Positions 12,445-31,219 of a stretch of 64,000 nt of DNA are shown piece after piece. A program made the position numbers and the translations under genes. Where the stretch lies: the NCBI RefSeq assembly GCF_000230735.2, contig NC_019962.1, positions 2,232,001-2,296,000 on the forward strand. Reading direction: 5' to 3'. Position 1 is the first letter of the stretch. Each line of letters opens with the position of its first letter. Under the pieces are notes generated by a model that saw nothing but the letters and a program-made list of their open reading frames with translations, had not been told where the DNA came from and ran no database searches. This DNA is from Natrinema pellirubrum DSM 15624. GTDB taxonomy: Archaea; Halobacteriota; Halobacteria; Halobacteriales; Natrialbaceae.

Positions 12445-13674
12445 CTATCGGTCGACGACGGTGACGCCGCGAACCTCGAACCGAGCCCCGCCGTTTCGTC
12501 CCGACGTGACCCTGATCGACCAGCCGTGGGCGTCGACCACGTCGCTGACGATCGCCAACCCGAAACCCGAGCCGCCGGCGCTCGAGTAGCCACTCTCGAA
12601 GATCCGCTCGCGCTCGTCGGGCGGGATTCCGGGACCGTCGTCTTCGACGTAAAACCCGTCGTAGTCGGCCGCTTCGCCCGACCAGTCCGTGGGCCGCGTT
12701 CCGTCCTCGACCGCTTTCGCCGCCTCGTCGTCGCGGTCCCCGTCGGCGGCCGTCGACTCGAGGGCCCCGATCTCGATACGGGGGCCGTCTCCCCCGTGTT
12801 CGACGGCGTTCTGCTGAGCGTGCGAAGCAGGGTTCGTCGAGCCATGCTCGACGGCGTCCTGACGAGTGTGCGAGTCAGGGCTTGTCGAACCGTGTTCGAC
12901 AGCGTTTCGAAACAGGTTCTCGAAGAGGTGGGCCAGAAGCGACGGATCGGCACGGATCACGACGTCGTCGACGACGTCGACGCTCGCGCCGTCCGTGCGG
13001 ACGGTGGTCCAGGCAGTCTCGACGGCCCGCGAGAGCGCCAGGAGTTCGGTCTCCTCGACCGTATCGATCGTCGCGAGGAGCAACGCCTCGTTGATGATCG
13101 ACTCCATGCGCTCGAGCGAGGCGCGCAACGGGTTTTCGTCGCTGTCGTCGCCGAGGTCGACGCCGTCGTCCAACTCGAGCATCTCCGCGTGTGCCAGCGC
13201 AACGGACAGCGGGTTCCGGAGGTCGTGAGAGAGCAGTGTGGCGAACGATTCCATCCGCTCGGCCTGTTCTCGCGTCCGCCGCTCGAGGAGTTTGCGCTCG
13301 GTGATGTCGACGTGCATGACGAGGACGAACCGCTCGCCGCCGTGGTCGTACGGTCTGGCATCCAGCAGGTACCAGCCGTCCTCGCCCGGCGTGTGGCAGG
13401 GGTACTCGAGGCGGAACGACTCGCTGTCGCCGGCGGCGATCGCGCGGATCCCGCGTGCAGTTTCGACTGCATCGGGATCGTCGCTCGCCTCACAGACCGC
13501 GAGGTAGTTACTCCCGACGCCACCCGCGCTCCGTGCTAGTCCCTGTTCCTCGCCGAACGATTCCCAGGACTCGTTCGTGTCGACGATCGTCCCCGACGCG
13601 TCGAGGATCGCGACGCGTGCGGGCAACGCGTCGAAGCCGGCCGCGACCAACGCATCCGTGCTTGGGCCACTCAT
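12445..13674 (-). CDS. PAS-domain sensor histidine kinase with expanded N box
   Basis: A soluble haloarchaeal histidine kinase of 409 aa. A PAS domain (about residues 10-135) precedes the HisKA phosphoacceptor motif SHDLRNPLSVALAHAEML and a HATPase domain with G boxes ending SGFGLAIVSDVVDAHGW. Directly after the N box (LFRNAVEHG) a 16-residue unit is repeated (AVEHGSTSPDSHTRQD, AVEHGSTNPASHAQQN, then AVEHGG), inserting about 32 residues into the ATP-binding domain. The ATG at 13674 is chosen over an upstream GTG. No response regulator is adjacent, and the signal is unknown. Confidence 0.85.
   Translation of the reverse strand: MSGPSTDALVAAGFDALPARVAILDASGTIVDTNESWESFGEEQGLARSAGGVGSNYLAVCEASDDPDAVETARGIRAIAAGDSESFRLEYPCHTPGEDGWYLLDARPYDHGGERFVLVMHVDITERKLLERRTREQAERMESFATLLSHDLRNPLSVALAHAEMLELDDGVDLGDDSDENPLRASLERMESIINEALLLATIDTVEETELLALSRAVETAWTTVRTDGASVDVVDDVVIRADPSLLAHLFENLFRNAVEHGSTSPDSHTRQDAVEHGSTNPASHAQQNAVEHGGDGPRIEIGALESTAADGDRDDEAAKAVEDGTRPTDWSGEAADYDGFYVEDDGPGIPPDERERIFESGYSSAGGSGFGLAIVSDVVDAHGWSIRVTSGRNGGARFEVRGVTVVDR
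12796..12900 (-). repeat. 48-bp tandem repeat inside the histidine-kinase gene
   Basis: Units begin at 12796, 12844 and 12892, a spacing of exactly 48 bp, giving a little over two copies. Each encodes 16 residues starting AVEHG and preserves the reading frame. The units differ at scattered positions, so the expansion is not very recent. Confidence 0.85.
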
Positions 13675-27467: not shown

Positions 27468-28325
27468 ATGGGAGAGCGCCTTCACGGGAACGAATGGTTC
27501 GAGATCCGTGAGCAGGTATTGGAGCGCGATAACTGGACCTGTAGAAACTGCAGTGATGAGAGTAATTTAGTTGTCCACCATGTGGTCCCGATTAGTGACC
27601 GGGGTACGAATCGATTACAGAACCTCGTTACACTCTGTAGGGAGTGTCATCGCGCAGCCCACGGTCACCAGCAAAATACTACCGCGACTGGAAAAACTCG
27701 TTCGCCGACTCGGAGGGTGTTTTCCACCGATGAACTGTCCGACCTTTGCCGAACTATCTCACATCCACTTTCTATGGCAGTCGTCGCAACGATCTCGAAA
27801 ACCGGAATTGGTATTGGCGAACTCTGCAACGTCGATATGGGCGATATAGACTTTGCCAGCGATTCAGGCATCACCACTCCGTTTGCTGGTCCGGGGATCC
27901 GAGTTCGGTATGGTGGAGATATTCCGTACAATAACCGGCGAGAACGGAGCCATGAAACAGTGGTTCCGATCGATACCGAATTAGAAGTACTTCTCCGACG
28001 CTGGATCGCGATCCGTCCTGACCCCGACCAGACGGACGCCCTCTTTCTCGAGACGAAAGGGAACTGGGGAAATCGAATCCAACCCTCGACTGTCCGGTAT
28101 ATATTCGAGAAAATAGGGCGAGAAAACGGCTGCTATTCTCAAAATGACCAACTGGAGAACTTCACTCCAGTTGCGTTGCGGTATTTCTTCGAAGAGCGCT
28201 TTCAGGGCCGACCACAGCATCGTGACTACATTCTCGGTCGACTTGATCGTTCGGAGATCGATCTTTCCACTCTCGAGAACGATTACCGGGCGTCTATCTT
28301 TCGACTATTCAGCGATGGTCCGTGA
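27468..28325 (+). CDS. HNH endonuclease fused to a catalytically dead tyrosine-recombinase domain
   Basis: A 285-aa two-domain protein. Residues 10-66 form a complete HNH nuclease: zinc cysteines Cys25/Cys28 and Cys57/Cys60, the HH pair His37-His38, Asn52 and His61/His65. Residues 88-285 align with the catalytic domain of the adjacent recombinases (ISKTGIGIGELCNVDMGD, ETVVPIDTELEVLLRRWIAIRP, TPVALRYFF). The catalytic Arg of the TGIR motif is Gly115, the catalytic Lys region is changed to ERSHE, and the HxxR His is Val235. Only Arg238 remains, and the YTH nucleophile motif is lost. The usual N-terminal core-binding domain is replaced by HNH. GC is about 50% in sampled lines, below its neighbours. 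The 3' end overlaps the convergent intA by 17 bases. A plausible role is site-directed nicking or cutting; unproven. Confidence 0.85.
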   Translation: MGERLHGNEWFEIREQVLERDNWTCRNCSDESNLVVHHVVPISDRGTNRLQNLVTLCRECHRAAHGHQQNTTATGKTRSPTRRVFSTDELSDLCRTISHPLSMAVVATISKTGIGIGELCNVDMGDIDFASDSGITTPFAGPGIRVRYGGDIPYNNRRERSHETVVPIDTELEVLLRRWIAIRPDPDQTDALFLETKGNWGNRIQPSTVRYIFEKIGRENGCYSQNDQLENFTPVALRYFFEERFQGRPQHRDYILGRLDRSEIDLSTLENDYRASIFRLFSDGP

Positions 28326-29325
28326 GCGAATAAATTCGATCGAGATACGTTTCGCGAACCCGATCCCCCCAGTTGTGGGTGTAGGTGTCGATTATGTCAC
28401 TCGCAACGTCCCCGCGTAGATATTTAACTATCCCACGGTCACCGGTCCGGTCCCGCAGATGAGTGGTGAAGAAGTGCCGGAAATAATGCGGTGTCACGTT
28501 TTCTGCTGCCCCACCACCGGTACGGAACCAGCCGTAGTCCCTTGTATACTGTTCGACGATATGATGGACCGTATCGATCGTGAGCCGCTTGCCCCATCGT
28601 TCGACGGTTCCGACGAACAGCGGTTCACTTCGAGACATCGCTTCCGGTCGGATAGCGAGCCATCGAACCAGCGCAGTTTCGAGTTCGGAGTCGATCGGAA
28701 TGATCGTTTCTCGTTTACGCTTATTTGATGCTTTCCGGATTATTCCTCCGGATTCTTGAGCGTACGTGTGTTCAGCGGAGATATACAGTGAATTCGATTC
28801 ATCACTGATCTGTGCCCGTGGATTCCATGATCTCGCCTCGTGGTTGAGATGCAAATCGATCAGATCGATGTTACAGAGTTCGCCGGATCGGATCCCCGTT
28901 TTTAGCATCGTCAGTATGACCGCTCGATGCAGCGGATGGCGAACGGTTGCGACGAAATTACGCATCTCTTCGAGTGAAACGTCCCGACGGGAGGGGTTCG
29001 ATTCGATCGATTCGGACATCTCCTCTAGTACAAGCTCCATCGGGTTCTCATCGTGTCGTCCAACCCGTACTAGATAGCTGTAGAACCGGTTCAGGTACGA
29101 CGCATAGCTTGCAACGGTGCTTTCGGCATATTCCGAACGCAGTTCGTGTGTGAAGGCCATACAGTCCCTGTAGCTCGCCTCAGCCGGTGCTTTGCCGAAC
29201 CGCTCGTCGAGAAACTCATCGAATTCGAAGAGGACGCGCCGATAGGCTGCGGCGGTCCGCTCGTTACGACCGTGGTGTTCGATATCCTCGAGGAAATACT
29301 CGATCGGTTCGGATCCGTCAGTCAT
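28309..29325 (-). CDS. Tyrosine recombinase/integrase, lower-GC copy (intA)
   Basis: A 338-aa XerC/D-like recombinase. The core-binding domain (about 1-110) is followed by the catalytic domain with Arg146 (KTGIRSGEL), Lys204 (NKRKRETIIP), His280 and Arg283 (TPHYFRHFF) and nucleophile Tyr315 (DTYTHNWG). In the place of the second His/Trp (LGH in XerD) the protein has LRGD with Asp306. All other catalytic residues are present, so it should be active. The ATG at 29325 overlaps the upstream regulator stop by 8 bases (ATGACTGA), indicating coupling. intB (30152-31219) is a close relative with much higher GC. Confidence 0.92.
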   Translation of the reverse strand: MTDGSEPIEYFLEDIEHHGRNERTAAAYRRVLFEFDEFLDERFGKAPAEASYRDCMAFTHELRSEYAESTVASYASYLNRFYSYLVRVGRHDENPMELVLEEMSESIESNPSRRDVSLEEMRNFVATVRHPLHRAVILTMLKTGIRSGELCNIDLIDLHLNHEARSWNPRAQISDESNSLYISAEHTYAQESGGIIRKASNKRKRETIIPIDSELETALVRWLAIRPEAMSRSEPLFVGTVERWGKRLTIDTVHHIVEQYTRDYGWFRTGGGAAENVTPHYFRHFFTTHLRDRTGDRGIVKYLRGDVASDIIDTYTHNWGDRVRETYLDRIYSLTDHR

Positions 29326-29719
29326 TGGTAGCCCGAACGTAACCGCCATCCCGTCCGCTGTACCGGATGAGGTTTTCGTCCTGAAGTTCGCCTAATGCAG
29401 TATCGACTTCGTTCTCGATATCGTCGATCAGTTCATCTACTAACTCGTCCCAGTCGAGGACGGCTTCCCGTTCGATCGCTTCGAGGATTCGTTCCTGCAG
29501 ATCGTCGGTATCCGTCTGTGTTCGGGTACGGTCCCCTGCTTCCGTCTCGGTATCGATACCATTCAGCGACGGAATATCGAAATCGCGCCGACCCGCTTGC
29601 ACCATCGTCCGGACGAATTCACTTTGACTCATGTCGAGTTCGTCAGCGTGGTCGGCCCATTCCTCCTTTTGGTATCGTGGAACGTACGTTTTCACTGCAG
29701 TTCGATCGTCGTCTGCCAT
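29318..29719 (-). CDS. Ribbon-helix-helix plus winged-helix protein (DUF5805-like), partner of intA
   Basis: A 133-aa protein. The N-terminal RHH domain (about 6-46; TAVKTYVPRYQKEEWADHAD, then MSQSEFVRTMVQAGRRDF) is joined by an acidic/Thr linker to a C-terminal winged helix (about 72-130; LDWDELVDELIDDIENEVD, LIRYSGRDGGYV). It is likely a DNA-binding accessory factor or autoregulator of the recombinase operon. The family name is from recall. The gene overlaps intA, and a perfect 24-bp palindrome sits 44-67 bases upstream, just beyond the probable TATA box. The equivalent gene of the second module is broken. Confidence 0.85.
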   Translation of the reverse strand: MADDDRTAVKTYVPRYQKEEWADHADELDMSQSEFVRTMVQAGRRDFDIPSLNGIDTETEAGDRTRTQTDTDDLQERILEAIEREAVLDWDELVDELIDDIENEVDTALGELQDENLIRYSGRDGGYVRATND

Positions 29720-29762
29720 ACGCTCGAGATCGAATCGCTGTCACTTCAATCTATCCTATATT

Positions 29763-29786
29763 CACAAATAAGGATATTTATTTGTG
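29763..29786. promoter_or_regulatory. Perfect 9-6-9 palindrome in the int intergenic region
   Basis: CACAAATAA (29763-29771), GGATAT (29772-29777), TTATTTGTG (29778-29786). The arms are perfect inverted repeats. The layout resembles an RHH operator, and also a Xer-type recombination site with a 6-bp centre. A further exact CACAAATAA copy lies at 29869-29877, near the start of the broken partner of intB. Confidence 0.7.
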
Positions 29787-29868
29787 TGTCTGCTACCGTC
29801 AAAGCGCCGCCCTCTCGAGATTAGTTGTCTATATGGGACTACTCTCGGACAGTGAATAGTAATAGATA

Positions 29869-29937: not shown

Positions 29938-30162
29938 ATGTTTCTCAGCTCTGACCCTGGGGGTAACGCCCTCGAAACACAGGTCCTCGAATTACTGGAA
30001 TCCGACACGTACTCCTGAGACGAACTCCTCGAGGCGGTCGCCGACGACATCGAGTCGCGACTGGACGAGACCCTCGAGGAGTTACAGGCGGCCAACCGGA
30101 TTCGATACAGCGGTCGCCACGGCGGATACACGGTCGTCGACGGTGATGGCGATGGCGACTGA
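29938..30162 (+). pseudogene. Broken winged-helix partner gene of intB (in-frame TGA)
   Basis: In this frame the sequence reads ALETQVLELLESDTYS, then a TGA stop, then DELLEAVADDIESRLDETLE and ANRIRYSGRHGGYTVVDGD. It aligns with the C-terminal winged helix of the intA partner (VLDWDELVDELIDDIENEVD, LIRYSGRDGGYV). The stop stands exactly where that protein has Trp, so a single TGG-to-TGA change explains it. No RHH domain is present upstream. The remaining frame runs to a stop overlapping the intB start by 11 bases, as in the intact pair. A sequencing error is possible, but the missing N-terminus favours real decay. Confidence 0.75.
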
Positions 30163-31219
30163 ACCGACCGCCGAGGCCCCCGAGGACGTGACCGACCCCA
30201 TCGCGTACTTCCTCGACGACCAACGGTACCACGGCAAGAGCGAGCGCACCCTCGAGGCCTACGACCGGGTGTTGCGCCGGTTCGAGTCCTTTCTCCTCGA
30301 GCGGTTCGATACCGATGCGACCGGCGCGGCGGGGCGTCGGGAGTGTATGGCCTGGATTCACTCGCTGCGCGGCGAGTTCGAATCCAGTACGATCGCGACC
30401 TACGCCTCCTATCTCAACCGGTTTTACGAGTACATGACCCGCGTCGGTGTCTTCGACGACAACCCGATGGCACTGGTCATGGAGGAGTTGTCCGAGTCGA
30501 TCGAGACGAACCCCACGCGGCGGGACATTTCGATCGCCGAAATGCGGTCGTTCGTCGACGGGATCGCCCACCCGCTCGAGCGGGCCGTCGTCGTCACCCT
30601 CTTGAAGACCGGGATGCGGGTCGGCGAACTGTGTAACCTCGATCTGCGGGATCTCCACCTCGAGACGCCCCCAGTCGACCTCGAGTGGACCCCGCGGGTC
30701 GGCCTCGAGCAGCGGCCGGCGTCGCTGTTCGTGTCGTCGGAGCCGGCCCGCGGCACCACAGTCAACGGCGAGGAGCGGACGGCCTCGAACAAGCGAAAGC
30801 GCGAGACGGTCGTCCCCGTCGACGAGGAACTTCGCCGGGTCCTGTGTGAGTGGCTGGCGATCCGACCGGACGCAGTCTCGCCGGCGCGACTGCTCTTTCT
30901 CGACACTCGCGATTCCTGGGGCCAGCGGCTCACGCCGTCGGACGTCCGCTATATCGTCGAGAAACACGCTCGAGAACGGGGCTGGTACCGAACCGGCGGC
31001 GGGACCGAGGAGAACGTGACGCCACACTACTTCCGGCATTTCTTCACCACCCATCTGCGGGACCGAACCGGCGATCGCGGGATCGTCCAGTATCTCCGGG
31101 GCGACGTCGCTGGCGACGTGATCGACACCTACACCCACAACTGGGGCGATCGAGTCCGCGAGACGTATCTCGACAGTATCTATTCCGTCACTGGTCGAGA
31201 GTCGAGTGCCGGCGTATGA
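30152..31219 (+). CDS. Tyrosine recombinase/integrase, high-GC copy (intB)
   Basis: A 355-aa XerC/D-like recombinase, closely related to intA: DPIAYFLDDQRYHGKSERTL in the core-binding domain, KTGMRVGEL with the catalytic Arg, NKRKRETVVP with the Lys, TPHYFRHFFTTHLRDRTGDR with His and Arg, and IDTYTHNWGDRVRETYL with the Tyr. As in intA, LRGD replaces LGH. GC is high (60-78% in sampled lines), as in the host chromosome. The ATG at 30152 is chosen because ATGGCGACTGA overlaps the partner's stop, mirroring the intA junction; ATG at 30146 is an alternative. It is probably functional, although its partner gene is broken. Confidence 0.92.
   Translation: MATEPTAEAPEDVTDPIAYFLDDQRYHGKSERTLEAYDRVLRRFESFLLERFDTDATGAAGRRECMAWIHSLRGEFESSTIATYASYLNRFYEYMTRVGVFDDNPMALVMEELSESIETNPTRRDISIAEMRSFVDGIAHPLERAVVVTLLKTGMRVGELCNLDLRDLHLETPPVDLEWTPRVGLEQRPASLFVSSEPARGTTVNGEERTASNKRKRETVVPVDEELRRVLCEWLAIRPDAVSPARLLFLDTRDSWGQRLTPSDVRYIVEKHARERGWYRTGGGTEENVTPHYFRHFFTTHLRDRTGDRGIVQYLRGDVAGDVIDTYTHNWGDRVRETYLDSIYSVTGRESSAGV

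What the first reader, a model, noticed from the sequence alone, without database searches (positions are those of the whole stretch)
27468..28325. HNH nuclease fused to a catalytically dead tyrosine-recombinase domain
The HNH domain is complete, while the recombinase part has lost the catalytic Arg (Gly115), Lys region (ERSHE), HxxR His (Val235) and the YTH nucleophile. The fold clearly derives from the same family as the two neighbouring recombinases, whose N-terminal core-binding domain is here replaced by HNH. This looks like a nuclease that borrows a recombinase for target recognition. A natural reading is a homing-type or defence-type enzyme acting on the site used by intA/intB, or a replication/resolution factor. 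I know of no described system with this architecture beside a duplicated int module.
Basis: partly seen in the sequence, partly recalled or inferred. Interest (0 to 1): 0.85.

Follow-up and report, generated by a model that had tools for sequence, protein, structure and literature searches.

The report
Nuclease steered by a dead recombinase
In salt-loving archaea and some of their viruses, a DNA-cutting HNH enzyme has been fused to a recombinase that lost the residues needed to recombine DNA, and its gene usually sits beside what looks like the chromosome-resolution (dif) site of the cell, so it is probably a selfish nuclease aimed at that site.

Summary
ORF 27468-28325 (285 aa) joins a complete HNH domain to a tyrosine-recombinase catalytic domain of XerA type; the core-binding domain is absent. 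It is not local decay. In 13 readable copies from Halobacteria and one virus-like contig, catalytic Arg-I is Gly, the HxxR His is lost and the Tyr segment is deleted in every copy, while 60 of 60 related recombinases keep all of these. The ten full-length copies keep every HNH and zinc residue, and the dead domain is under purifying selection (dN/dS 0.12). AlphaFold plus Foldseek gives archaeal XerA as the best match.

New here: the neighbouring RHH-recombinase operon is the core XerA-like locus of haloarchaea. A 28-bp dif-like site (11+6+11) lies 66-87 bp before RHH in nearly all loci, with repeats upstream. In one genome an element is integrated exactly there. Twelve of 16 HNH-Int genes or remnants lie beside this locus, in at least three families, with at least two separate arrivals; two others are on virus-like contigs. 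They are AT-rich, patchy and often broken.

Best reading: a homing-type, selfish nuclease that uses a dead Xer domain to reach dif. Site recognition and cleavage are inferred, not shown.

The parts
27468..27698 (+). HNH nuclease domain and linker of HNH-Int (residues 1-77; HNH proper 25-65)
   Evidence: Pfam PF01844 E 6e-11; HNH and four zinc Cys invariant in 10 full-length copies
27699..28325 (+). Dead XerA-type catalytic domain of HNH-Int (residues 78-285 and stop): Gly115 for Arg-I, Glu159 for Lys, Val235 for His, Tyr segment deleted, Arg238 kept
   Evidence: Pfam PF00589; NCBIfam XerA_Arch E 4e-14, below cut-off; catalytic table; Foldseek XerA
28309..29349 (-). IntA, intact XerA-like recombinase of the acquired module; convergent with HNH-Int, 17-bp overlap
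   Evidence: Pfam and NCBIfam; own clade with support 95/100
29318..29719 (-). RHH-A, ribbon-helix-helix + DUF5805 protein, operon partner of IntA
   Evidence: DUF5805 E 1e-24; precedes the recombinase in the core loci fetched
29761..29788 (.). dif-like site TTCACAAATAA-GGATAT-TTATTTGTGTG (11+6+11), the only perfect match to CACAAATAA-N6-TTATTTGTG in the genome
   Evidence: rank 1 of 63973 positions in the window
29971..30129 (+). RHH-B remnant (DUF5805 part only, in-frame TGA 30016-30018), disrupted resident partner of IntB
   Evidence: tblastn 48% to RHH-A residues 74-127; sequence
30141..31219 (+). IntB, intact resident XerA-like recombinase, vertically inherited across haloarchaea

Best explanation
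HNH-Int is a site-specific nuclease made by replacing the core-binding domain of an XerA-type recombinase with an HNH nuclease and discarding recombinase catalysis. SHOWN: the architecture, family-wide fixed loss of Arg-I, His and Tyr, an intact HNH, purifying selection, one origin, patchy AT-rich distribution with many broken copies, and a position beside the dif-like site of the haloarchaeal RHH-Xer locus in most genomes that have it. INFERRED: the dead domain still binds dif-type arms (it keeps Arg-II and the RP and WG motifs shared with the active paralogues), places HNH next to dif and nicks or cuts there; repair from an HNH-Int-bearing copy then installs the gene beside dif. In the window the travelling unit is HNH-Int + IntA + RHH-A with its own dif variant (ACAAATAA arms instead of GAGATAA), which has displaced the resident dif and the 5' half of RHH-B and might itself escape cutting. 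So: a homing-type, selfish dif-targeting nuclease.
For: Architecture and losses. Fold. Selection: closest pair L008/L038, dN/dS 0.25 (HNH), 0.12 (dead Int), 0.05 (IntA). Single HNH-Int clade 95/100, separate from resident recombinases, with Natrialbaceae members in two strongly separated branches. Genes or remnants at the RHH-Xer/dif locus: window, N. hispanicum, G302, G064, G297, G192 (remnant), G131 (truncated), G410, G060, G073, G303, G339. Dif-like sites at fixed distance in about 65 loci; shuffled best scores mean 0.4, max 18.4, most real sites above 20. Element integrated at dif in G163 with identical spacers at both ends. GC 52% against 66% for the window; lower than its surroundings in all nine other copies measured, though only slightly in the viral one. 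Copies on virus-like contigs L083 and G307 C6, the latter with portal and ParA genes. Six of 15 genomic copies broken.
Against: No binding or cleavage data. The two viral copies and G030 show no convincing dif nearby; the site at the 3' end of the G307 gene is probably a coding coincidence. No clean empty/occupied site pair could be assembled, because gene content upstream of dif differs between congeners. Same-side, same-orientation placement could partly be vertical inheritance with losses. The window module could have entered by ordinary recombination.
Confidence: 0.5

Rival explanations
1. Guard of dif: a host- or virus-carried nuclease that destroys DNA molecules carrying foreign dif-type sites, thus blocking elements that integrate at dif.
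For: Elements do integrate at haloarchaeal dif (G163); the gene is under purifying selection; viral copies exist, fitting exclusion of competitors.
Against: Very patchy and often broken; no recognisable protection gene; PADLOC gives only generic HNH hits; its own chromosomal dif would be at risk unless its arms differ.
Confidence: 0.17
2. Accessory factor of the Xer/dif system: binds dif or forms mixed complexes with XerA to regulate or resolve recombination intermediates, the HNH nicking junctions.
For: Derived from the partner recombinase, beside dif and RHH-Xer; G030 has RHH directly upstream of HNH-Int in the place of an Int.
Against: Most haloarchaea have RHH-Xer and dif without it; viral and unlinked copies; low GC and several lineages.
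Confidence: 0.15
3. A viral HNH nuclease (packaging or mobile) whose dead recombinase half recognises some other site; its position beside dif follows from virus integration at dif.
For: Branch L043/L164/L044/L083 contains virus-like contigs; a 13-kb element sits in dif in G163.
Against: HNH-Int at the core locus is not flanked by two dif copies and no viral genes were evident upstream; the window clade travels with its own RHH-IntA and dif.
Confidence: 0.13
4. A decaying integrase pseudogene with a chance HNH fusion (local decay).
For: Loss of catalytic residues; several copies broken.
Against: Same losses fixed in all 13 copies, intact HNH, one clade, dN/dS well below 1.
Confidence: 0.02

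Closest known systems
Archaeal XerA / dif (Pyrococcus abyssi XerA 4a8e, Thermoplasma acidophilum XerA 5hxy; PMC2958812, PMC3646895)
   Same: C-terminal half has the XerA catalytic-domain fold and sequence; a dif-like 11+6+11 site lies nearby
   Different: No Arg-I, His or Tyr, no core-binding domain, HNH instead; should not recombine. The gene is beside dif, whereas Thermococcales dif is not next to xerA (PMC2958812)
Free-standing HNH homing endonucleases of phages and introns (own knowledge)
   Same: HNH nuclease with a separate DNA-binding module, patchy, mobile, decay-prone, found in viruses and next to a presumed target
   Different: The DNA-binding module is a dead tyrosine recombinase; the target would be the chromosome-resolution site
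IscB and 5h0m-type HNH nucleases
   Same: Closest sequence matches of the HNH half with zinc Cys pairs
   Different: Only the HNH segment matches; no RNA guide evidence; score far below the IscB cut-off (60.9 against 175)
Elements exploiting Xer (IMEX), e.g. LME-1 of Legionella (PMC9765430)
   Same: Mobile DNA associated with dif and Xer
   Different: HNH-Int is not flanked by dif repeats; it would enter by break repair, not by Xer recombination

Membership tests
Tyrosine recombinase (functional Xer/XerA) | R-K-H-R-Y catalytic residues | tested here: not met
   Arg-I G 13/13, HxxR His lost 13/13, Tyr deleted 13/13, Lys lost 11/13; Arg-II kept 11/13
Tyrosine recombinase (functional Xer/XerA) | Catalytic-domain fold | tested here: met
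   AF2 pLDDT 79; Foldseek best hits XerA 5hxy and 4a8e, probability 1.00, TM 0.45-0.52 over the whole chain
Tyrosine recombinase (functional Xer/XerA) | N-terminal core-binding (SAM-like) domain | tested here: not met
   No Phage_int_SAM hit; HNH in its place
HNH nuclease | beta-beta-alpha metal motif with H-N-H and flanking CxxC pairs | tested here: met
   PF01844 E 6e-11; residues invariant in 10 copies
HNH nuclease | Cuts or nicks DNA | not testable with these tools
   needs enzyme assay
Homing endonuclease | Sporadic distribution, horizontal spread, decay | tested here: met
   about 15 haloarchaeal genomes of several hundred searched, 6 of 15 broken, low GC, two Natrialbaceae branches
Homing endonuclease | Gene lies at its own recognition site, empty alleles carry the intact site | tested here: inconclusive
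   12 of 16 beside dif, and relatives without the gene have dif; that dif is the recognition site is not shown
Homing endonuclease | Super-Mendelian inheritance through cut-and-repair | not testable with these tools
   needs mating experiment
IscB (RNA-guided) | RuvC, PLMP domain and omegaRNA | tested here: not met
   only the HNH segment matches, 60.9 bits against cut-off 175; omegaRNA itself was not searched for
Known anti-phage defence protein | Match to a defence model beyond the generic HNH domain | tested here: not met
   PADLOC hits confined to residues 7-70

The most novel reading that the evidence does not exclude
A selfish nuclease system that re-uses an inactivated chromosome-resolution recombinase as its guide to dif, and in its fullest form (this window) travels as a cassette (HNH-Int + RHH + IntA + variant dif) that cuts resident dif alleles and replaces the host's whole Xer/dif system by its own.
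Probability: 0.3. Interest if true: 0.88.

Novelty: new variant of a known kind. Interest (0 to 1): 0.73.

Why it matters
If true, a recombinase turned into an address label would be a new way for nucleases to acquire specificity, and the chromosome-resolution site would be a target of selfish DNA in archaea. Independently, the analysis yields a candidate haloarchaeal dif site with accessory repeats and an RHH partner beside an XerA-like gene; a 2020 review still left the role of the many XerC/D genes of Haloferax volcanii in replication termination undetermined (PMC7776575). Both are directly testable in existing haloarchaeal laboratory strains.

Tried and rejected
Local decay: rejected. Decayed HNH-Int behind the long non-coding stretch upstream of dif in genomes without the gene: no remnants found by profile search of 59 loci apart from the known copies. 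HNH-Int as an element flanked by two dif copies: only one dif per locus. A dif site at the 3' end of the G307 copy (21 bits, rank 1): set aside as a probable coding coincidence, since the viral copy L083 has related sequence at the same codons. RNA-guided IscB relative: only the HNH segment matches. Defence system: only generic HNH hits. Plasmid and phage collections: no full-length relative. A second viral scan with the viral branch found no further full-length copy. Literature: no HNH-recombinase fusion, haloarchaeal dif or dif-homing nuclease found in the held library. The direct-repeat finder did not reveal the upstream repeats; a position-weight scan did.

Full report
WHAT IS THERE. The frame 27468-28325 (+) encodes 285 aa. 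Residues 25-65 are an HNH nuclease (PF01844, E 6e-11) and 104-238 a tyrosine-recombinase catalytic domain (PF00589, E 1e-7); the core-binding domain found in IntA and IntB is missing. In its own genome the C-terminal half matches IntA and IntB next door (36% and 46%). The NCBIfam archaeal XerA model matches HNH-Int (E 4e-14), IntA (2e-31) and IntB (1e-33), all below its cut-off, so these are XerA-like but not in that equivalog.

NOT DECAY. Relatives were found in Natrinema hispanicum (60%), in haloarchaeal genomes of several families and in an IMG/VR contig (33% over residues 3-280). In the 13 rows with a readable recombinase half (the window's included), Arg-I is Gly 13/13, the HxxR His is lost 13/13, the Tyr position is deleted 13/13 and Lys is replaced 11/13, with Arg-II kept 11/13; the 60 resident and IntA recombinases are R-K-H-R-Y 60/60. 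One of the 13 (G131) is truncated, so its Tyr loss is uninformative. All HNH and zinc residues are invariant in the ten full-length copies. For the closest pair (L008/L038; other pairs are near or at saturation in dS), dN/dS is 0.25 for HNH, 0.12 for the dead domain and 0.05 for IntA. The maximum-likelihood tree puts all HNH-Int rows on one branch (95/100), apart from every active recombinase; long branches mean that its exact root is unsure. The AlphaFold model (pLDDT 79, ten sequences) has archaeal XerA 5hxy and 4a8e among its best Foldseek matches.

THE SURROUNDINGS. Strong matches to the recombinase half occur in 376 of 391 haloarchaeal genomes, and an RHH/DUF5805 gene precedes the recombinase in the core loci fetched. 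About 66-87 bp before the RHH start nearly all of some 65 loci carry an 11+6+11 dif-like palindrome, e.g. AATCGAGATAA-GGTCTT-TTATCTCGAAT; a few divergent loci score low or have none recognised. Typically three direct 20-bp repeats (TATCTcaAnTngTaGnaC) lie just upstream (mean 2.2 per locus against 0.15 in shuffled sequence and 0.05 on the other strand). In G163 a 13-kb element sits exactly at this site, with hybrid sites carrying the same spacer ACTCAC at both ends (L178 520-547 and 13609-13636), so the site is used by a recombinase. These features fit a Xer/dif module. The held literature describes dif in Thermococcales and Sulfolobales (PMC2958812), and leaves the role of Haloferax XerC/D genes in termination open (PMC7776575); I found no haloarchaeal dif site described.

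WHERE HNH-INT SITS. Twelve of 16 genes or remnants lie beside this locus. In G060, G073, G303, G339 and G410 the gene is upstream of resident dif-RHH-Xer, same orientation, ending about 150-270 bp before RHH where this could be measured. In the window, N. hispanicum, G302, G064 and G297 the order is HNH-Int, IntA (reversed), RHH-A (reversed), dif, then a remnant of RHH-B and IntB; the remnant starts at about RHH residue 72-90 in all five, so this arrangement has one origin, and IntB is broken in G064 and G297. IntA forms its own clade and has its own dif arm type (ACAAATAA/TTATTTGT) against the resident GAGATAA type. HNH-Int (52% GC), IntA (54%) and RHH-A (54%) are AT-rich in a 66% GC window, while IntB is 65%; nine other HNH-Int genes are also AT-richer than their loci, the viral one only slightly. 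In the tree G410 groups with G307, G030 and the viral copy, far from the other Natrialbaceae, so at least two arrivals at dif in one family are needed. Exceptions: G307 (a 56-kb contig with portal and ParA genes, hence virus-like), the IMG/VR contig (tail-spike genes), G030 (its own RHH directly upstream) and G208 (pseudogene, followed by ATAAGAACGC, the same spacer as its resident dif). Six of 15 genomic copies are broken.

MECHANISM. Shown: fusion, inactivation, conservation, mobility signs, linkage to dif. Inferred: the dead domain binds dif-type arms and HNH cuts nearby. The most economical account is a homing-type nuclease: cutting beside dif would draw in the gene by break repair, explaining repeated arrival at one place, the patchy distribution and the decay. 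The window version would be a cassette that brings its own recombinase and dif and so replaces the target. Rivals (guard against dif-integrating elements, Xer accessory factor, viral nuclease with another target) remain open and are separable by the experiments listed.

LIMITS. No biochemical data; no clean empty/occupied pair, since gene content upstream of dif varies between congeners; scores of XerA membership are below the curated threshold; the genome sample is one per species; that the RHH-recombinase operon really resolves chromosome dimers is inferred from the site, its conservation and the G163 insertion; the literature search covers open-licence papers only.

Noticed in passing
about 65 haloarchaeal loci, e.g. 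L019, L068, L171; window 29761-29788: Candidate haloarchaeal dif site (11+6+11) at a fixed distance before an RHH/DUF5805-XerA-like operon, with typically three phased 20-bp repeats upstream; apparently an undescribed Xer/dif module.
   Followed up: partly
L178 520-13636 (G163:C16): A 13-kb mobile element is integrated exactly at dif, flanked by hybrid dif sites with identical spacer ACTCAC; an integrase-like ORF lies near one end (12447-13055), though Pfam gave no match to it.
   Followed up: partly
G307:C6 (L181, L180, L043): A 56-kb virus-like contig with portal protein and ParA carries an HNH-Int gene directly after parA.
   Followed up: partly
window 29971-30129: RHH-B is a remnant (RHH part lost, in-frame TGA); a similar truncation is seen in four related genomes, and in two of them IntB is also broken.
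   Followed up: yes
G000:C1:2986574-2986783 (L005): Another HNH domain 44% identical to that of HNH-Int, in a 333-aa frame of unknown C-terminal part.
   Followed up: no
L044 11442-11852: A second, separate HNH gene 1.4 kb downstream of the RHH-HNH-Int pair of G030.
   Followed up: no
L172/L173, between the PH-domain gene and dif: About 1.5 kb without a convincing gene upstream of dif in genomes that lack HNH-Int, long for a haloarchaeon.
   Followed up: partly
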